Made by a program: the position numbers and the translations under genes. The notes under the pieces were generated by a model, which saw nothing but the letters and a program-made list of their open reading frames with translations, was not told where the DNA came from and searched no databases. A stretch of DNA of 64,000 bases, taken from NCBI RefSeq assembly GCF_010726245.1, contig NZ_AP022561.1, positions 372,001 through 436,000 on the forward strand. The letters are read 5' to 3'. This DNA is from Mycolicibacterium aichiense (GTDB lineage Bacteria > Actinomycetota > Actinomycetes > Mycobacteriales > Mycobacteriaceae). Below are positions 7,179-44,899 of this stretch, one piece after another (position 1 is the first letter of the stretch; each line of letters starts with the position of its first letter).

Positions 7179-8627
7179 ATGACTGAGAACTTTGCGACGA
7201 CAGATGCCGGTGCTCCAGCCCCGAGCCTCGAACATTCCCTGACCGTCGGGCCGGACGGCCCGATCCTGCTCCAGGACCACTACCTGATCGAGCAGATGGC
7301 CAACTTCAACCGCGAACGTATCCCGGAGCGACAGCCGCACGCCAAAGGTGGCGGTGCGTTCGGAACATTCGAAGTGACCCAGGACGTCAGCCGATTCACC
7401 AGGGCGGCGTTCCTGCAGCCCGGCACCAAGACCGACATGGTGGCCAGATTCTCCACCGTCGCCGGTGAACGCGGCAGTCCAGACACCTGGCGTGACCCGC
7501 GCGGATTCGCGCTGAAGTTCTACACCTCCGAGGGCAACTTCGACCTCGTCGGCAACAACACCCCGGTGTTCTTCCTGCGGGATCCGATCAAGTTCCAGAA
7601 CTTCATCCGCTCCCAGAAGCGCCTGCAGTCGTCGAACCTGCGTGATCACCACATGCAGTGGGATTTCTGGACGCTCTCACCGGAATCCGCGCATCAGGTC
7701 ACCTGGCTGATGGGGGACCGCGGCATTCCGAAGACGTGGCGAAACATGAACGGCTACTCCAGTCACACCTACAGCTGGATGAACGCGGCCGGCGAGCTGT
7801 TCTGGGTCAAGTACCACTTCAAGACCGACCAGGGCATCGAATTCCTCACCCAGGAGGAAGGCGACGAATTGGCCGGCAGCGACGGCGATTACCACCAACG
7901 GGACCTCTTCGACACGATCGAGGCCGGCGACTTCCCGAGCTGGACGCTGCACGTCCAGATCATGCCGTTCGAGGACGCCAAGACATACCGGTTCAATCCG
8001 TTCGACCTGACCAAGGTGTGGCCGCACAGCGACTACCCGCTGCACGAAGTTGGTCGAATGACGTTGAACCGCAACGTCACCGATTACCACGCTGAGATTG
8101 AGCAGGCCGCCTTCGAACCGAACAACATCGTGCCCGGCACCGGACTGAGCCCGGACAAGATGCTGTTGGCGCGCGGGTTCTCCTACAGCGACGCCCATCG
8201 GCACCGACTCGGGGTGAACTACAAGCAGATTCCGGTCAACACACCGAGAGTCGAGGTGCACAGCTACTCCAAGGACGGTGCGATGCGGATGCGCAACGTC
8301 ACCGACCCGGTGTACGCGCCGAACTCGGTCGGAGGCCCGCAGGCCGATCCCGCGCGGGCGGCTGAGGTGCACTGGGCCTCCGACGGCGACATGGTCCGCT
8401 CGGCCTACGCCCTGCGTCAAGACGACGACGACTGGGGCCAGGCCGGCACCCTGGTTCGGGAAGTTCTCGACGACGATGCCCGAGACCGGTTGGCGCACAA
8501 CGTCATCGGTCACGTCTCCAAGGGCGTCAAGGAGCCGGTGCTGTCCCGGGTGTTCGAGTACTGGCGCAACATCGATCCCGACCTCGGCAAGAAGATCGAG
8601 GAAGGCGTGCGAGGCAAGGCCGAGTAA
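7179..8627 (+). CDS. katA: Heme catalase KatA
   Basis: Monofunctional heme catalase that splits hydrogen peroxide to water and oxygen in the cytoplasm. The 482 residues match a small-subunit (clade 3) enzyme. The distal histidine is His54 in [17 protein letters not shown]. Arg90 lies in [20 protein letters not shown] and the distal asparagine is in DLVGNN (about 126-127). The proximal heme-binding segment is [16 protein letters not shown] with the axial tyrosine. GGGAG lies three bases before the ATG. It is distinct from KatG. The Ohr gene lies just downstream, separated by an inverted repeat, so the two form a peroxide-defence pair. Confidence 0.96.
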
Positions 8628-9861: not shown

Positions 9862-11151
9862 ATGACGTTCGTCGTCACCTCGGAGTCGGGCCGCGCACAT
9901 TGCGGTTCGGGTGCCGAAGAACGTGTCCTGAACAGCTCATCCTCGGCTGCCTTGCACATCGCGGGCGCCTCGTTGGACGACGGTCCGATCGGTCGGGTGG
10001 GTCTGGAACTCGAGGCGCACTGCTTCGATCTGGCCGACCCCCTGCGCCGTCCGGGCTGGTCGGAACTGAGCGACGTGATCGCCACCGTCGGGCCGCTGCC
10101 CGGCGGCAGCGCCGTCACCGTGGAACCGGGTGGTGCGGTCGAACTGTCCGGCCCGCCGGCTGCAGGCCCCCTGCCGGCCATCGCCGCGCTGGCGGCTGAC
10201 CGGTCGACGCTGTGTTCGGCGTTCGCCGAGGCCGGCCTCGGCCTGGTCCTGCTCGGCGCCGACCCGCTTCGCCGCACTCAACGAATCAATCCCGGCGCCC
10301 GCTACCAGGCGATGGAACAGTTCTTCGTGGCCTCCGGCACGGCGAGCGCAGGGGCGGCGATGATGACCTCGACGGCCTCGATCCAGATCAACCTCGACGC
10401 CGGTCCGCGCGACGGCTGGGCCGAGCGGGTGCGGCTCGCCCATGCGCTCGGCCCGACCATGATCGCGATCGCGGCGAATTCACCGCTGCTCGGCGGGGAC
10501 TTCACCGGCTGGGTCTCGACTCGACAGAGGGTGTGGAGTCAGCTGGATTCGGCGCGCTGCGGGCCCGTCCTGGGCGCGAGCGGTGACGATCCCTGCACCG
10601 ACTGGGCCCGCTACGCGCTCAAGGCGCCGGTGATGCTGGTGCACAACCCGGATCCGGTCGCGGTCACCGAGCATGTGCCGTTCGCGGATTGGGCCGACGG
10701 ACTGGTCCTCCTCGGCGATCGCCGCCCGACCACCGCCGACCTCGACTACCACCTCACCACGCTGTTTCCGCCGGTGCGCCCGCGCCGCTGGTTGGAGATC
10801 CGTTACCTCGACAGCGTGCCCGACGCACTACTGCCCGCAGTGGTGTTCCTCATCGTCACCCTGCTCGACGACCCAGCCCTCGCCGAGTTGGCCGCCGAGG
10901 CCGTCGAACCGGTCGCGACCGCATGGGACCTGGCAGCCAGGGTCGGCCTCAAGGACGACCGCCTCTACCAAGCGGCCAACCGCTGCATCGCGCTGGTCGC
11001 CGACCTGGCACCCGCGGAATTATCCGAGTCGATGCGGCGGTTGGTCCAGAACGTGGAAGAAGGACGCTGCCCAGCTGACGATTTCGCCGACCGGGTCATC
11101 GAGCGCGGTATCGAAGGTGCCGTCCTGCAGATGGCCGAGGCGACAGCGTGA
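9862..11151 (+). CDS. egtA: Glutamate-cysteine ligase EgtA
   Basis: Joins glutamate and cysteine with ATP to gamma-glutamylcysteine, the thiol donor for ergothioneine synthesis in mycobacteria. The 429-residue product has the GCS2-type core: [15 protein letters not shown] (metal and substrate binding), [39 protein letters not shown] and [13 protein letters not shown]. The start is an ATG with GGAAG nine bases upstream; an ATG nine bases earlier is an alternative. The gene opens the egt operon and its TGA overlaps the egtB GTG by four bases. A second GCS2-like gene lies 7.5 kb away. Confidence 0.96.
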
Positions 11152-38972: not shown

Positions 38973-39008
38973 TCGTTTCGGTCTCCGGCGTCGGGGTACT
39001 CGTCGCGC

Positions 39009-39995
39009 ATGACGCGCTTCGGATACACCCTGATGACCGAGCAGAGCGGGCCCAAAGACCTTGTGCGCTACGCTGTTTCGGCTGAACAGGCAGGCTTCGA
39101 CTTCGAAGTCTCCAGTGACCACTTCTCGCCCTGGCTGACCTCCCAGGGGCACGCACCCAATGCCTGGACGACGCTGGGCGCTGTCGCGCACGCGACCGAG
39201 CGGGTGGCGCTCTACACCTACGTCACGTGCCCGACGATGCGCTATCACCCCGCCGTGGTCGCGCAACAGGCCGCCACCCTGCAGATCCTGGCCGACGGGC
39301 GATTCACCCTCGGTCTGGGTTCCGGTGAGAACCTCAACGAACACGTCGTCGGCAAAGGGTGGCCGACGATCCAGCGGCGCCAGGACATGCTCAAAGAAGC
39401 GATCGTCGTGATTCGCGAGCTCTTGAGCGGCGAGCTCGTGGACCACAAGGGCGACTACTTCGAGGTCGATTCGGCACGGATATGGGACGTCCCCGACGAA
39501 CCGGTCACCATCGGCGTCGCAATGTCGGGCGAGCGCTCGGTCGATGCCTTCGCGACGGTGAGTGACCATCTGATCGCCGTGGAACCCGACGGCAAACTGG
39601 TCGACGCCTGGCACCGGGCGCGCCAGGCCACCGGTCTGGCCGGTGGCGGGCGGATCATCGGGCAGATTCCGGTGTGTTGGGATCCCGACCGCGACGCCGC
39701 GATCCAGCGGGCGCACGACCAGTTCCGCTGGTTCGGCGGCGGCTGGGATGTCAACGCCGACTTGCCCACCCCGGCCGGGTTCGCCGGCGCCACCCAGTTC
39801 GTCAGACCGCAGGACGTTGCGGACAGCATTCCGTGCGGACCCGACCTGGACGCCATCGTGGAATCAGTCAAGAAGTACTGGGACGCCGGATTCACCGACA
39901 TCGCGCTCGTGCAGATCGGTGACGAAGGGCAGGACGAATTCCTGGCGAAGGCGGCTGAACCCTTGTTGGCGAAGCTGCGGGACGCCGCACACTGA
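39009..39995 (+). CDS. F420-dependent LLM-class oxidoreductase
   Basis: Bacterial luciferase-like fold of 328 residues. Motifs: MTRFGYTLMTEQSGPKDLV, SSDHFSPWLTSQGHAPNAW (typical of the F420-dependent glucose-6-phosphate dehydrogenase-like group TIGR03557), CPTMRYHPAVVAQQAATL and LGLGSGENLNEHVVG. The group uses coenzyme F420 to oxidise or reduce an unidentified substrate; this is not Fgd1 itself, as far as I can tell. It follows yqeY by 36 bp on the same strand. Confidence 0.92.
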   Translation: MTRFGYTLMTEQSGPKDLVRYAVSAEQAGFDFEVSSDHFSPWLTSQGHAPNAWTTLGAVAHATERVALYTYVTCPTMRYHPAVVAQQAATLQILADGRFTLGLGSGENLNEHVVGKGWPTIQRRQDMLKEAIVVIRELLSGELVDHKGDYFEVDSARIWDVPDEPVTIGVAMSGERSVDAFATVSDHLIAVEPDGKLVDAWHRARQATGLAGGGRIIGQIPVCWDPDRDAAIQRAHDQFRWFGGGWDVNADLPTPAGFAGATQFVRPQDVADSIPCGPDLDAIVESVKKYWDAGFTDIALVQIGDEGQDEFLAKAAEPLLAKLRDAAH

Positions 39996-40065: not shown

Positions 40066-40091
40066 GGTTCAAACGAAAGGTGTCGGGGTAA
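40066..40091 (+). promoter_or_regulatory. SigF-like promoter for the small acidic protein
   Basis: GGTTC-N15-GGGTAA, close to the mycobacterial SigF pattern GGTTT-N15-17-GGGTAT. It predicts transcription starting near 40098-40100, three to five bases before the ATG of the small protein, i.e. a nearly leaderless message. Two further SigF-like boxes lie in the next 3 kb. Confidence 0.5.
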
Positions 40092-40102
40092 TCCCGCTGG
40101 TC

Positions 40103-40276
40103 ATGACAGACCGCACCTCGGATGAAGAAGATCACGCCGACTACACCGACGACCACCAGGACGAGCCGCGTGGCGGACGGCCCGGTCCTGCGGACAAGGG
40201 CGGGCAAGGTGGGATGTCCACCCGCGAAGTGGCCCCTGACGTCGCCGCGTCGCCCGATCAGGAGCCGCCCGACTAG
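40103..40276 (+). CDS. Small acidic hydrophilic protein (57 aa), unknown
   Basis: Too short for usual ORF cut-offs. The 57-residue product starts MTDRTSDEEDHADYTDDHQD and is rich in Asp, Glu and Gly with no hydrophobic core, so it is probably disordered. Support: a SigF-like promoter only a few bases upstream of the ATG, a start far from other genes, and a stop that shares the four bases CTAG with the stop of the convergent gene. Many SigF-dependent stress genes are of this small, charged kind. No known family. Confidence 0.5.
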   Translation: MTDRTSDEEDHADYTDDHQDEPRGGRPGPADKGGQGGMSTREVAPDVAASPDQEPPD

Positions 40277-40971
40277 GACTCGGCGTCGCGTCCTTCTCGG
40301 CTGCTGCGGTACGCCTTGGCCCGGACGTTTCGCAACCATTCCGGCCAGACCTGTACGTCCGGTGCGCTGTGGCGGACCGGGTCGAACGAGACGTCATGCT
40401 CGGCGTGCTGGTTCAGCGGCACCACCTCGGTGAGCCGCAGGGTCGCCATCGGCTCGAATCCGCCGTTCCCGCGCGCTTGCTCGACGTCGAAGTCCAGGCC
40501 GTCGCCGTTGATCCGCTGGTGCACTGCCTGCAGTGACAATCCCGAGCCGCCGACGGGCGTGGTCAGGCGGGCGCGGATCCACCACAGTTCGTCCTCGTAT
40601 CGCAGCGGCAGCAGGCTCGAATACACCGCCTCTGACCATGACGTCACCGCACGCAATGCCACCCGGTTGGGTACGAAGGCGCTCGCCCCGAACCCCGCAG
40701 ACACCAGCAAGACGTCCCACGGGGTGGCAGCGAACGCGGCAGGGGGCATCCGCCAGGCCAGCCCAGCGGCATCCGGCAGGGCGCCGGGTGTGCCGAGAGC
40801 TTTGGAGACGCGCCCGACGATGTTGCCGGATTCGACCGGAAGACCTTCATGCGGTGGCGACAACCGCTCGATCGTGCCGTTGGCCAATACGCCGCTGGGA
40901 TGGAAGAAACGGCGCTGCCGCAGTGCGGCGCCGGCGGCAATGGGAAGGGCTGCAAGATCGGAAGCTTTCAC
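40273..40971 (-). CDS. Unrecognised protein with catalase-like N-terminal motifs
   Basis: The 232-residue product starts MKASDLAALPIAAGAALRQR. FFHPSGVLANGTIERL (His24) and, 30 residues on, GRVSKALGTPGALPDAAGLA (Arg54) follow. Their order resembles the distal heme site of KatA in this window ([15 protein letters not shown] with His54; [20 protein letters not shown] with Arg90). The catalase asparagine and proximal tyrosine motif are absent. The fold link is my inference from motif order. The GTG has GGAAGG eight bases upstream, a strong site; the frame further upstream is spurious. It is divergent from the methyltransferase and convergent with the small acidic gene. Confidence 0.75.
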   Translation of the reverse strand: MKASDLAALPIAAGAALRQRRFFHPSGVLANGTIERLSPPHEGLPVESGNIVGRVSKALGTPGALPDAAGLAWRMPPAAFAATPWDVLLVSAGFGASAFVPNRVALRAVTSWSEAVYSSLLPLRYEDELWWIRARLTTPVGGSGLSLQAVHQRINGDGLDFDVEQARGNGGFEPMATLRLTEVVPLNQHAEHDVSFDPVRHSAPDVQVWPEWLRNVRAKAYRSSREGRDAES

Positions 40972-41015
40972 ACCGAATGCCTTCCCGGTCGGTGGGGCGG
41001 GCAAACAACTCGCCG

Positions 41016-41041
41016 GGTTTAACGCCCCCGTAATGGGGCAT
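41016..41041 (+). promoter_or_regulatory. SigF-like promoter for the methyltransferase-CDGSH unit
   Basis: GGTTT-N15-GGGCAT: a perfect -35 and one mismatch in the -10 against GGGTAT. It predicts a 5' leader of about 47 bases before the methyltransferase start. GCCCC-CGTAAT-GGGGC within it can form a small hairpin. Confidence 0.5.
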
Positions 41042-41094
41042 GTATCTCGCAGCGCGGTGAGAAAACACGGGCGCGATCGACTGTCGAAAGGCCA

Positions 41095-41793
41095 ATGTTG
41101 ACCATTCTCTACCCCGACCTTGAAAGTTCGGTTGCAGCTGTTCCCGGCGTCTATGCGCCGCAACAGGATTCGCAGTTACTCATCGAAGCCATGACCATAT
41201 TTGGCGCTGTCCCCGGTCGCCGTGTGGTTGATCTGTGCACTGGAAGCGGCGTGATCGCGATTTCGGCCGCGCAGCTGGGCGCCGATAGCGTCACCGCATT
41301 CGACATCTGCCCCAAGGCGGTTCGATGTGCCGCCGACAACGCCGAAGAGGCCGGTGTCGGAGTTGAAACGCGGCTGGGCACCTGGGGCGACGCCCTCGCA
41401 GCCGGTCCGTTCGATCTCGTCGTCTCCAATCCGCCTTATGTGCCAACGAGTCCCGATGCCCACCTTGAGGAGATCTCCGCCGAAGTGGGTCCGTCGACGG
41501 CCTGGAATGCCGGCGTCGACGGCCGCCAGGTTCTGAATCCGCTGTGTGACTCGGCCGCGGAATTCCTGAGCAACAATGGAACGATGCTGATCGTGCAGTC
41601 GGAGTTCTCGGACACCGATCAGTCGCTGAGCCGCTTGCGGTCCGCTGGTCTGGACGCGGACGTTGTTCTGCGTCAGGTCATTCCGTTCGGGCCGGTGCTG
41701 AGCGCCCGGGCGTCGTGGATGGAGAGGATCGGTATGCTGCCCGCCGGCAGGCGGGAGGAGGAAATCGTGGTGATTCGCGCGGAAAAGCGGTGA
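41095..41793 (+). CDS. HemK-like class I methyltransferase
   Basis: The 232-residue product has the PrmC/HemK methyltransferase core: VYAPQQDSQLLIEA, motif I GRRVVDLCTGSGVIAISAAQ, DICPKAVRCAADNA, and the glutamine/amino-binding FDLVVSNPPYVPTSP with NPPY. It lacks the N-terminal helical domain of PrmC, so the target may not be a release factor. Its stop overlaps the CDGSH gene's GTG by four bases. The ATG has GAAAGG just upstream. It is preceded by a SigF-like promoter. The substrate is unknown; in this context it may modify a small molecule or a redox protein. Confidence 0.92.
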   Translation: MLTILYPDLESSVAAVPGVYAPQQDSQLLIEAMTIFGAVPGRRVVDLCTGSGVIAISAAQLGADSVTAFDICPKAVRCAADNAEEAGVGVETRLGTWGDALAAGPFDLVVSNPPYVPTSPDAHLEEISAEVGPSTAWNAGVDGRQVLNPLCDSAAEFLSNNGTMLIVQSEFSDTDQSLSRLRSAGLDADVVLRQVIPFGPVLSARASWMERIGMLPAGRREEEIVVIRAEKR

Positions 41794-42020
41794 GCGACGA
41801 CGAACCCCGGGTGGTCCGGATCGTCAGCGGCGGCCCCATGATGGTGCAGGGGCCGGTGCGGATCGAGATGCCCGACGGCTCCGTCGTCGAGTCCGACCGC
41901 TTCATGGTCGCGATCTGTATGTGCAAGCGCAGCAAGACCTATCCGCTGTGTGACACCAGTCATCGCCGTCGCCGGCGTACCGGCGACGGCGAGTCGTCAG
42001 CTGCTCAGCGGCCGGCGTAG
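41790..42020 (+). CDS. CDGSH-type [2Fe-2S] protein
   Basis: The 76-residue product carries one CDGSH signature: Cys43, Cys45, Cys54 and His58 in AICMCKRSKTYPLCDTSH, i.e. C-x-C-x8-C-x3-H, with Thr56 in place of Gly. It should bind one [2Fe-2S] cluster with three cysteines and one histidine, the mitoNEET type, and serve as electron carrier or redox sensor. It has no membrane anchor. Its GTG lies within the methyltransferase stop, so the two are translated together. Its 3' end overlaps the convergent iron-enzyme gene by 24 bp. Confidence 0.93.
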   Translation: MSDDEPRVVRIVSGGPMMVQGPVRIEMPDGSVVESDRFMVAICMCKRSKTYPLCDTSHRRRRRTGDGESSAAQRPA

Positions 42021-43019
42021 CGAGCTGCGTCCGCCGGTCCAGCATCGCATCAGGTGATCGGCTAGCCGGTCCTCCACCACCAGGTGGGCCCGGATTCCGA
42101 AGATGACATCCCGCTCCAGCGCCGGCTCCCGGCTCACCAGATCGCCTACGACGTCGGTGCGGACCACCTGCTCGTGTACGGCGTCAGCCTCCACGTGCTC
42201 ACGGTAAAACTGTGCACACGTGTCCGGCGCACCCATCCGCTCCATGGCATCGACCAGTCGACGCGACCCCGGCGACGAGGTGATCTCGGTGGAGGCGAAG
42301 TGTCCGATGGCAGCGCCCCGATACGCACGGTGCAGTCCGAACATCGACATCAGGTTCACCACGGTCAGCGACGCGGCGGGCACCGCGTCGATGTAGCCGA
42401 GGTAGCTCGCGTCGAGGCCAGCGGCGACCATCAGGTCGGCGAAGAGCTGCTGGTGCGCGTGATCGCTTCTGCCACCGCCGAATTCGTCGAACTCGATGGC
42501 CACGAACGCCGACTTGGCCAGTCCGGTCAGCCGGGGGATGGCCCACGCGTGCGGGTCGCCCTCTTTGAGGTGGTAGAGCGAGCGATGCACGAAGTACTCC
42601 TGCATCTGCTCCCAGGTGCCCTTGCTGCGCAGATAGTAGGACGGGCCGGTGCCGTCCGCCGGTTCGATCGTCAGCTTCGCCATCTCGGCGTCGGCCGTGT
42701 CTTCGGGACCGATGTCACCGACGTCGCGCTGCACAGCGGTCAGGAACGTCTCTTCGAGTTGGGCGCGCAGATACAGAAGTCCCGGGTTCCACTCCCAACC
42801 GGGATCGACTCCGGCAAACCCGCGGTAGTGCAGCTCGTAGCAGACGTAGAGCGCAAGCTGGATGTCGATGCCGTAAGGATCGGAGTCATGGAGCGATGCT
42901 TCGATCCGCTGCAGATAGTTGCGCGGCGCACGTTCGGTGAGAAGCTCGAGGACGGCCATCGATACCGGCCCACGAGCTTCAGGGAGGCGCGGTTCTACAA
43001 CTATGGGAGCAAGCGTCAC
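41997..43019 (-). CDS. Iron-containing redox enzyme (heme-oxygenase-like fold)
   Basis: All-helical heme-oxygenase-like protein of about 340 residues, PF14518 type. C-terminal motifs AIGHFASTEITSSPGSRR (Glu245) and FYREHVEADAVHE (His275-x3-Asp279-x2-His282) match the ligand spacing of heme-oxygenase-like diiron oxidases such as CADD; Glu179 and His187 are other candidates. Such enzymes activate oxygen for oxidative chemistry; the substrate is unknown. I choose a GTG giving MTLAPIVVEPRLPEARGPV, because it lies three bases beyond the predicted SigF-like start. Longer frames up to 43211 are possible. It converges on the CDGSH gene, which could supply electrons. Confidence 0.87.
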   Translation of the reverse strand: MTLAPIVVEPRLPEARGPVSMAVLELLTERAPRNYLQRIEASLHDSDPYGIDIQLALYVCYELHYRGFAGVDPGWEWNPGLLYLRAQLEETFLTAVQRDVGDIGPEDTADAEMAKLTIEPADGTGPSYYLRSKGTWEQMQEYFVHRSLYHLKEGDPHAWAIPRLTGLAKSAFVAIEFDEFGGGRSDHAHQQLFADLMVAAGLDASYLGYIDAVPAASLTVVNLMSMFGLHRAYRGAAIGHFASTEITSSPGSRRLVDAMERMGAPDTCAQFYREHVEADAVHEQVVRTDVVGDLVSREPALERDVIFGIRAHLVVEDRLADHLMRCWTGGRSSLRRPLSS

Positions 43020-43028
43020 TGAAAGCTT

Positions 43029-43055
43029 GTCCCCGCAGAGGCGAGGAGCTAAACC
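43029..43055 (-). promoter_or_regulatory. SigF-like promoter for the iron enzyme
   Basis: On the minus strand GGTTT-N16-GGGGAC: perfect -35, weak -10 (expected GGGTAT). It places transcription start near 43022, about three bases before the chosen GTG, so the message would be almost leaderless. It is the weakest of the three SigF-like sites in this locus. Confidence 0.35.
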
Positions 43056-43228: not shown

Positions 43229-44899
43229 ATGGACGCAGACGTCATCGTGATCGGCGCCGGCCTGGCCGGTTTGGTCGCCACCCACGAACTGACCAGCCGC
43301 GGTAAAAAGGTGCTGCTGCTCGACCAGGAGAACCAGGCCAACCTCGGCGGTCAGGCGTTCTGGTCGTTCGGTGGCCTGTTCTTGGTCGACACCCCCGAGC
43401 AGCGTCGGCTGGGTGTCAAGGACAGTCTCGAGCTCGCCTGGGGTGACTGGTCCGGAAGTGCGCAATTCGACCGGGTCGACGACGAGGACAGTTGGGCGGT
43501 GCGGTGGGCCCGCGCCTACGTCGACTTCGCCGCCGGTGAAAAACGCTCCTGGCTGCTGGGGCACGGCATCACGTTCCTGCCGACCGTCGGCTGGGCTGAG
43601 CGGGGTGACCTCCGCGCCGACGGGCACGGAAACTCGGTGCCGCGCTTCCACGTCGCCTGGGGCACCGGCACCGGCGTGGTCGAGCCGTTCGTCAACTCCG
43701 CACTGGCTGCCGCCGAGCGCGGCCTGGTGATCTTCCGGCACCGGCACCGGGTCGACGAACTGGTCATCGCGGACGGTGCCACAACCGGCGTGCGGGGCAC
43801 GGTGCTGGCGCCTGACGACGCACCACGCGGTGCGCCGTCGAATCGGGATCGACTGGGCGACTTCGAATTTCATGCTCAGGCCGTAATCGTCACCACCGGT
43901 GGCATCGGTGGGAACCACGACATCGTGCGGCGCTACTGGCCGCAGCGGATGGGCACACCGCCCACGTCGATGATCACCGGTGTGCCGGCCTACGTCGACG
44001 GGCGGATGCTCGACATCGCCGCCGGCTCCGGCGTGCGCCTGGTCAACCGAGACCGGATGTGGCACTACACCGAAGGTGTGCAGAACTGGGATCCGATCTG
44101 GCCGAAGCACGCCATCCGGATTCTGCCGGGACCGTCATCGATGTGGTTCGACGCACTGGGCCGGCGGCTGCCCCAGCCGTACCTGCCCGGCTACGACACC
44201 CTGGGCACGCTGCGCTATCTGCGCACCACCCCGGAGATCGCCGGGTACGACCACAGCTGGTTCATCCTGACCCAGAAGATGATCGAGCGGGAGTTCGCCC
44301 TGTCGGGTTCCGAGCAGAACCCCGACATCACCGGCAAGGACCGCACCGGATTCCTCAAGGAGCGGTTGTTCAGCAAGGGTGCGCCGGCGCCGGTGGAGGC
44401 CTTCAAGCGCAACGGAGCGGACTTCGCGGTGGCCGACGGTCTCGACGAACTGGTGGCGAAGATGAATGCGCTCACCGACGAACCGCTGCTGGATGCCGGG
44501 CTGATTCGCCGACAGATCGAGTCGCGCGACCTGCAGATGGCAAACCCGTACTCCAAAGACGCTCAGGTGCAAGGCATTCGCAACTCTCGTCGCTACATCG
44601 GCGACCGCATCGGCCGGACCGCCGCACCGCACCGGATTCTCGACCCGGCCGCGGGGCCGCTGATCGGGGTGAAGCTGCACATCCTGACGCGAAAGACTCT
44701 CGGCGGTATCCAGACCGATCTGTCGTCGCGGGCCATCGGAACGGACGGCCAGCCGATCGACGGGCTGTACGCGGCGGGGGAGGTCGCCGGCTTCGGCGGC
44801 GGTGGCGTGCACGGATACAACGCATTGGAAGGAACGTTCCTCGGCGGCTGCCTGTTTTCCGGGCGTGCCGCGGGTCGGGCGGCCGCGACAGCACTGTGA
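43229..44899 (+). CDS. FAD-dependent dehydrogenase, KstD/fumarate-reductase type
   Basis: The 556-residue flavoprotein opens with DADVIVIGAGLAGLVATHEL (FAD ADP-loop), then QANLGGQAFWSFGGLFLVD, and ends with GEVAGFGGGGVHGYNALEG, the FAD-contacting tail of the FAD_binding_2 family. Members include 3-ketosteroid delta1-dehydrogenases and fumarate reductases; from memory this one is closest to the mycobacterial Rv0785 type, annotated only as an FAD-binding dehydrogenase. The substrate is unknown. GAAGGG lies about ten bases before the ATG. It is divergent from the iron-enzyme gene. Confidence 0.9.
   Translation: MDADVIVIGAGLAGLVATHELTSRGKKVLLLDQENQANLGGQAFWSFGGLFLVDTPEQRRLGVKDSLELAWGDWSGSAQFDRVDDEDSWAVRWARAYVDFAAGEKRSWLLGHGITFLPTVGWAERGDLRADGHGNSVPRFHVAWGTGTGVVEPFVNSALAAAERGLVIFRHRHRVDELVIADGATTGVRGTVLAPDDAPRGAPSNRDRLGDFEFHAQAVIVTTGGIGGNHDIVRRYWPQRMGTPPTSMITGVPAYVDGRMLDIAAGSGVRLVNRDRMWHYTEGVQNWDPIWPKHAIRILPGPSSMWFDALGRRLPQPYLPGYDTLGTLRYLRTTPEIAGYDHSWFILTQKMIEREFALSGSEQNPDITGKDRTGFLKERLFSKGAPAPVEAFKRNGADFAVADGLDELVAKMNALTDEPLLDAGLIRRQIESRDLQMANPYSKDAQVQGIRNSRRYIGDRIGRTAAPHRILDPAAGPLIGVKLHILTRKTLGGIQTDLSSRAIGTDGQPIDGLYAAGEVAGFGGGGVHGYNALEGTFLGGCLFSGRAAGRAAATAL

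What the first reader, a model, noticed from the sequence alone, without database searches (positions are those of the whole stretch)
40066..43055. Compact SigF-like redox/iron locus: catalase-like protein, HemK-like methyltransferase, CDGSH protein and iron oxidase
Five small genes in 3 kb all carry redox or iron signatures or lack a known family. The methyltransferase and the [2Fe-2S] CDGSH gene share start/stop bases, the heme-oxygenase-like iron enzyme converges on them with a 24-bp overlap, and an unrecognised protein with catalase-like motifs and a 57-aa acidic protein sit beside them. Three transcription starts have SigF-like boxes. Oxygen-activating diiron oxidases need electrons; a CDGSH protein encoded next door is a plausible source. 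Together this looks like a stress-induced oxidative modification or detoxification pathway that I do not recognise.
Basis: partly seen in the sequence, partly recalled or inferred. Interest (0 to 1): 0.8.

Follow-up and report, generated by a model that had tools for sequence, protein, structure and literature searches.

The report
Conserved diiron oxygenase and CDGSH pair
A mycobacterial stress locus encodes an iron oxygenase of the nitrogen-oxidising type beside a small iron-sulfur protein; the two genes also lie together in many other members of the phylum, which suggests that they work as partners.

The parts
41997..43019 (-). Heme-oxygenase-like diiron oxygenase (HDO), 340 aa, PF14518, SznF/RohS-type ligand set E153, E179, H189, E245, H275, D279, H282
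41790..42020 (+). CDGSH [2Fe-2S]-type protein, 76 aa; overlaps the methyltransferase by 4 bp and the HDO by 24 bp
   Evidence: 59.1 bits; 3Cys-1His motif, in relaxed form, in 125 of 127 CDGSH sequences from loci with an HDO; only CDGSH match in this genome
41095..41793 (+). HemK2/MTQ2-like SAM methyltransferase, 232 aa, with NPPY motif, without the PrmC N-terminal domain
   Evidence: (TIGR00537 97.6 bits, cut-off 87; TIGR03534 PrmC 109.4, cut-off 199.1 not reached; profile positions 64-226 only)
40273..40971 (-). Small catalase-fold protein, 232 aa (several relatives are named 'phosphodiesterase' by NCBI)
40103..40276 (+). 57-aa acidic protein, probably disordered (by eye); partial matches in the same place in related mycobacterial loci
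   Evidence: no family; 23-57 residues matched in L059-L062, L100, L101
40982..41006 (-). SigF-like promoter box of the catalase-like gene, GTTT-N16-GGGAA, 10 bp before the start
41017..41040 (+). SigF-like box of the methyltransferase-CDGSH unit, GTTT-N15-GGGCA, 54 bp before the start
   Evidence: exact in 8 of 8 orthologous loci examined
43030..43054 (-). SigF-like box of the HDO gene, GTTT-N16-GGGGA (one mismatch), 10 bp before the start
40067..40090 (+). SigF-like box of the 57-aa gene, GTTC-N15-GGGTA (one mismatch)
38975..38998 (+). SigF-like box before the upstream F420-dependent LLM gene, GTTT-N15-GGGTA
39009..39995 (+). F420-dependent LLM oxidoreductase (TIGR03557), syntenic neighbour and possibly co-regulated, not part of the core
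   Evidence: (510.6 bits, cut-off 210.4)

Best explanation
The core is a two-gene module, HDO + CDGSH, that recurs in several classes of Actinomycetota. The HDO is a diiron oxygenase of the SznF/RohS type (three His, four carboxylates) that most likely activates O2 to oxidise a nitrogen of an amino-acid-like or amine substrate (inferred from fold and ligands). The CDGSH protein is its dedicated redox partner: it re-reduces the diferric centre after each turnover, or supplies iron/sulfur to the labile cofactor (inferred). A HemK-like methyltransferase, and in other lineages a GCS2-type ligase or a family-2-like glycosyltransferase, act before or after that step on the same small molecule (inferred from recurring neighbours). 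In this mycobacterium the genes are switched on together by the general stress sigma factor SigF (inferred from recurring boxes), and a small catalase-fold protein made at the same time may remove leaking peroxide (inferred).
Against: The two genes are not one operon here, nor in the 52 of 72 named pairs on opposite strands (43 convergent, 9 divergent, 20 co-directional). Two of the 21 HDO genes have no CDGSH within 10 kb and a third has it 7.6 kb away. Of the 80 named loci 8 show none; 4 of these 8 have 4.5 kb or more on both sides, and none of the three Acidimicrobiales loci has CDGSH. HrmI, the nearest structure, is described as 3H/3C, not 3H/4C (PMC13108848), so fold and ligand class do not fix the reaction. 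No substrate, interaction or electron transfer was tested. That MSMEG_1770-1774 are these genes rests on order and annotation only: the published MSMEG_1771 promoter was not found in 396 genus genomes nor in genome contigs.
Confidence: 0.5

Rival explanations
1. CDGSH is not an electron donor but an iron or [2Fe-2S] supplier or repair factor for the labile diiron site of the HDO. NEET proteins are known to hand over clusters (recalled).
For: HDO cofactors are described as labile (PMC13108848 passages); the same co-location evidence fits equally.
Against: No evidence here separates it from electron donation. Lability is described for many HDOs, yet 0 of 29 lower-scoring PF14518 genes in the sample lie near CDGSH.
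Confidence: 0.2
2. The HDO works like DtpC of Acinetobacter baumannii: a stress-protective HDO that keeps hydrogen peroxide or free iron low in dried or starved cells, not a biosynthetic enzyme.
For: DtpC is an HDO co-transcribed with KatE; either limits peroxide in dried cells, and DtpC needs its HDO metal residues (PMC13232832: abstract, section 6 and part 1 of 2 of the discussion). The window HDO sits by a catalase-fold protein with SigF-like boxes, and MSMEG_1770-1774 are listed as changed in repeatedly spray-dried M. smegmatis (PMC5445863 passages).
Against: The catalase-like gene has one weak match near 80 other HDO loci. Ligase, methyltransferase and glycosyltransferase partners point to a substrate. 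The quoted DtpC residues (E143, H153, H232) match our spacing for the first pair only, and the DtpC sequence was not compared.
Confidence: 0.2
3. HDO and CDGSH are only co-regulated stress genes kept together by shared control, without a biochemical link.
For: Here they are convergent genes with separate SigF-like boxes; SigB/F/G-type sigma genes lie near some modules.
Against: The pair stays together in several classes with changing neighbours and orientations, and goes with one scoring group of PF14518 only.
Confidence: 0.1

Closest known systems
SznF, HDO domain (N-oxygenase of streptozotocin biosynthesis)
   Different: No cupin domain; about 18% identity; SznF is reported to act on N-methyl-arginine (PMC13108848 passage); no CDGSH partner known to me (recalled)
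HrmI (lysine N-oxygenase of hormaomycin biosynthesis)
   Different: Described as 3H/3C (PMC13108848 passage); about 18-20% identity; natural-product cluster, not a SigF locus (recalled)
RohS (2-aminoimidazole N-oxygenase)
   Same: Best profile hit (5e-16); also has the extra carboxylate ligand (E93, PMC11611611 passage)
   Different: Structure aligns from our residue 46-47 on; azomycin-type pathway (recalled)
DtpC of Acinetobacter baumannii
   Same: HDO linked to drying and oxidative stress, gene beside a catalase gene (PMC13232832)
   Different: Real KatE catalase in one operon; the term CDGSH has no hit in that text; ligand spacing differs as quoted
CDGSH/NEET proteins (mitoNEET and bacterial single-domain forms)
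   Same: PF09360 with the 3Cys-1His motif
   Different: Encoded with an HDO subfamily, which the listings of my paper searches do not show
M. avium subsp. paratuberculosis 33-kDa catalase-related protein (3e4w, 3e4y)
   Different: Window protein is shorter (232 aa against about 301 residues) and matches no Pfam catalase model

Membership tests
Heme-oxygenase-like diiron oxidases/oxygenases (HDO) | PF14518 profile match above cut-off | tested here: met
   191.9 bits, cut-off 28.9
Heme-oxygenase-like diiron oxidases/oxygenases (HDO) | Helical bundle with 3 His and 3 carboxylate ligands on core helices | tested here: met
   E179, H189, E245, H275, D279, H282 invariant in 33 of 33
Heme-oxygenase-like diiron oxidases/oxygenases (HDO) | Bound dinuclear metal and O2 activation | not testable with these tools
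   needs purified protein
3H/4C HDO subgroup (SznF, RohS) | Extra Glu ligand from an auxiliary helix (SznF E189, RohS E93) | tested here: met
   E153 aligns with SznF E189 and with a Glu of RohS, invariant in 33 of 33; class described in PMC13108848 (passage)
3H/4C HDO subgroup (SznF, RohS) | N-oxygenation of a substrate | not testable with these tools
   substrate unknown
CDGSH/NEET proteins | PF09360 and 3Cys-1His motif | tested here: met
   (59.1 bits, cut-off 29.5); motif read in the window protein; relaxed motif in 125 of 127 sequences
CDGSH/NEET proteins | Redox-active [2Fe-2S] cluster | not testable with these tools
   needs spectroscopy
PrmC/HemK release-factor methyltransferases | NCBI PrmC equivalog cut-off | tested here: not met
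   109.4 bits, cut-off 199.1
HemK2/MTQ2-like methyltransferases | TIGR00537 cut-off | tested here: met
   97.6 bits, cut-off 87 (a relative in L050 scores 83.6, below it)
Catalase (PF00199) | Family profile match | tested here: not met
   no catalase match in any of 45 members at E up to 10 (HMMER's filters drop most very weak matches)
Catalase fold superfamily | Catalase beta-barrel fold | tested here: met
Catalase fold superfamily | Distal His and proximal RxxxY haem ligand | tested here: inconclusive
   H24 and R217-x3-Y221 invariant in 45 of 45 and fall on the motifs of one of three catalase-family proteins in an alignment whose own score is not significant
SigF regulon | GTTT-N14-19-GGGTA-like box before the gene | tested here: met
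   GTTT-N15-17-GGGHW exact for catalase-like and methyltransferase genes, one mismatch for HDO and 57-aa genes
SigF regulon | Loss of expression in a sigF mutant | not testable with these tools
   published for MSMEG_1770-1774 (PMC4694148); sequence identity with these genes not verified
DtpC-type stress HDO | Sequence relation to DtpC | not tested
   I did not have the DtpC sequence

The most novel reading that the evidence does not exclude
Actinomycetota carry an undescribed two-component oxygenase: a seven-ligand diiron N-oxygenase with its own CDGSH [2Fe-2S] reductase, as far as I know the first NEET protein that would serve an oxygenase. Under general stress sigma control it makes an N-oxygenated amino-acid-derived metabolite (built or trimmed with a HemK-like methyltransferase, GCS2-type ligase and glycosyltransferase) that helps cells survive drying and oxidative stress.
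Probability: 0.3. Interest if true: 0.87.

Novelty: new variant of a known kind. Interest (0 to 1): 0.7.

Why it matters
To my knowledge the physiological electron donor of heme-oxygenase-like diiron oxygenases is not known (recalled; a term search of the 2026 review PMC13108848 gives no hit for 'ferredoxin', 'electron donor' or 'iron-sulfur'), and most bacterial CDGSH proteins have no assigned partner (recalled). A widely kept pair of the two makes both questions directly testable with two purified proteins. It would also place N-oxygenation chemistry, so far described in natural-product pathways, inside a general stress response.

Tried and rejected
A reading of the five genes as one unit was rejected: the catalase-like gene has one weak match near 80 named HDO loci. 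A catalase profile match was sought at E up to 10 and not found. A profile alignment of the catalase-like family to three stretches with catalase matches of this genome gave no significant score; for one of them (L108) my script took the wrong frame, so that row tests nothing. A CDGSH fusion in L085 was suspected and dropped, because the CDGSH part reads as a separate small gene at the end of a long open frame. The published M. smegmatis MSMEG_1771 promoter was sought to tie the locus to expression data: 0 of 396 genus genomes exactly and with up to 3 mismatches, 0 in genome contigs. PrmC function for the methyltransferase was rejected on its cut-off.

The SigF box is not enriched over the whole window (6 found, 3.27 expected); only its placement and recurrence count. 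My gene finder is a simple composition script that misses or lengthens some genes, so the neighbour counts rest on profile searches of all six frames. In L051 the HDO match is in two pieces; I counted it as present. Two of the 80 named loci (L150, L152) come from the two ends of one Actinoplanes contig.

Paper searches for CDGSH with HDO or oxygenase listed no paper on this pair. Limits: open-licence papers only; one search lists 20 of 26 papers; the term 'heme-oxygenase-like' does not match the spelling with a space.
Full report
WHAT IS THERE. The window lies at 372001-436000 of a 5.93-Mb one-contig genome. The nearest named relatives of the proteins are Mycolicibacterium and Mycobacterium species. 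Between 40067 and 43054 there are five genes: a 57-aa acidic protein (40103-40276 +), a 232-aa catalase-like protein (40273-40971 -), a 232-aa HemK-like methyltransferase (41095-41793 +), a 76-aa CDGSH protein (41790-42020 +) and a 340-aa PF14518 oxidase (41997-43019 -). CDGSH and PF14518 each match once in this genome.

THE PAIR. I searched the same 119 Actinomycetota genomes for PF09360 and PF14518 (neither match list is marked as cut). Of 50 PF14518 matches, 21 score 175 bits or more, among them the window's, and 29 score 170 or less. CDGSH lies within 2 kb of 18 of the 21 and of 0 of the 29 (Fisher P 7e-11; not corrected for relatedness). The three exceptions are one at 7.6 kb, one at 68 kb in a genome that also has a paired copy, and one without CDGSH on its 16-kb contig. 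The 21 come from 19 of the 119 genomes, so the module is widespread but not universal. CDGSH is within 5 kb in 72 of 80, within 1500 bp in 67 and within 500 bp in 45; 43 pairs are convergent, 20 co-directional and 9 divergent. Titles name Solirubrobacterales, Micromonospora, Actinoplanes, Geodermatophilus, Blastococcus, Modestobacter, Arthrobacter, Clavibacter, Kribbella and Streptosporangium relatives, among others. The 8 without CDGSH include all three Acidimicrobiales loci; 4 of the 8 are cut short on one side, 4 are not. In 40 regions from 37 genomes, which I chose by CDGSH from the listed matches to cover genera of the order, not at random, 35 have the HDO within 3 kb.

OPTIONAL PARTNERS. 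In the 80 named loci, within 5 kb of the HDO: a family-2-like glycosyltransferase in 23, a GCS2/YbdK-type carboxylate-amine ligase in 21, the HemK-like methyltransferase in 18, the catalase-like protein in 1 (46 bits). In the 40 order regions the methyltransferase scores over 190 bits in 17 and the ligase is present in 8. Family names come (PF00535 25.4 bits, cut-off 23.3; PF04107 131.5 bits, cut-off 21). Clustering of called genes in 100 loci found no other partner of similar frequency; one cluster of 10 is an opposite-strand frame inside the HDO gene, judged by its coordinates. A methyltransferase, an amide-forming ligase and a glycosyltransferase around an oxygenase look like small-molecule chemistry; that is inference.

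CONTROL. GTTT-N15-17-GGGHW, close to the published SigF consensus (PMC4694148, passages), stands 10 bp before the catalase-like gene, 54 bp before the methyltransferase and 10 bp before the F420 enzyme; HDO and 57-aa genes have one-mismatch boxes. In eight orthologous mycobacterial loci the methyltransferase box is exact in 8 of 8, the HDO box in 5 of 8 and, where the gene was tested, the catalase-like box in 5 of 6; the 57-aa gene has a one-mismatch box in 2 of 3. In the misses of the first three, and for the HDO of L100, the longest-frame start that I assumed lies upstream of the place where the box is expected; in L059 and L062 a box is visible there. Outside the genus, a SigB/F/G-type sigma gene lies within 5 kb of 3 of the 21 HDO genes (0.12 expected from gene density, P 3e-4) and within 12 kb of 5 (0.29 expected, P 1e-5). 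In M. smegmatis, MSMEG_1770-1774, which include a 'putative methylase' (1771) and a gene assigned to the same promoter (1772), fall by log2 3.3-6.4 in a sigF mutant (table passage of PMC4694148), and are listed as changed in repeatedly spray-dried cells (passages of PMC5445863). I could not reach M. smegmatis sequence, so that these are the same genes is likely but not shown.

MECHANISM. Shown: gene identities, recurring pairing, ligand set, predicted fold, boxes. Inferred: SigF turns on CDGSH and HDO together; the HDO binds two irons, takes up O2 as a peroxo species and oxidises a substrate nitrogen; CDGSH returns the electrons, or supplies iron/sulfur; methyltransferase, ligase or glycosyltransferase modify the same molecule. 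The nearest functional precedent for stress is DtpC of A. baumannii, an HDO that, like its operon partner KatE, keeps peroxide low in dried cells (PMC13232832: abstract, section 6 and part 1 of the discussion); I could not compare its sequence.

NOVELTY. HDO enzymes, CDGSH proteins and SigF regulons are known. The pairing of a seven-ligand HDO subfamily with CDGSH does not appear in the listings of my paper searches (open-licence library only). I file it as a new variant of a known kind.

Noticed in passing
window 39009-39995: F420-dependent LLM oxidoreductase (TIGR03557) has an exact SigF-like box 10 bp before its start and is a syntenic neighbour in several related mycobacterial loci; a 67% identical copy also sits beside HDO-CDGSH in another family of the order (L056).
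   Followed up: partly
window 7197-8333: A full-length catalase (PF00199, 618 bits) lies in the same window, one of three catalase-family matches in the genome.
   Followed up: no
window 9997-10914: GCS2-family ligase (PF04107, 242 bits), probably the EgtA of an ergothioneine cluster (recalled from gene order, not tested).
   Followed up: no
window 43229-44899: FAD-binding dehydrogenase PRK12834 (951.8 bits) follows the locus; of the 60 regions searched only the close relative L101 has it.
   Followed up: no
L085 8095-9033: A SigB/SigF/SigG-family sigma factor (TIGR02980 above cut-off) starts 4 bp after the open frame that holds CDGSH, in an unnamed member of the same class.
   Followed up: partly
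L052 8186-8458 and L065 7741-7947: CDGSH genes without an HDO nearby lie next to a CopZ-like gene in two loci, so a second, metal-linked CDGSH context may exist.
   Followed up: no
L064 and L054: Methyltransferase and CDGSH remain together without an HDO nearby, in a same-genus genome and in a same-family genome; the HDO may have been lost or moved.
   Followed up: no
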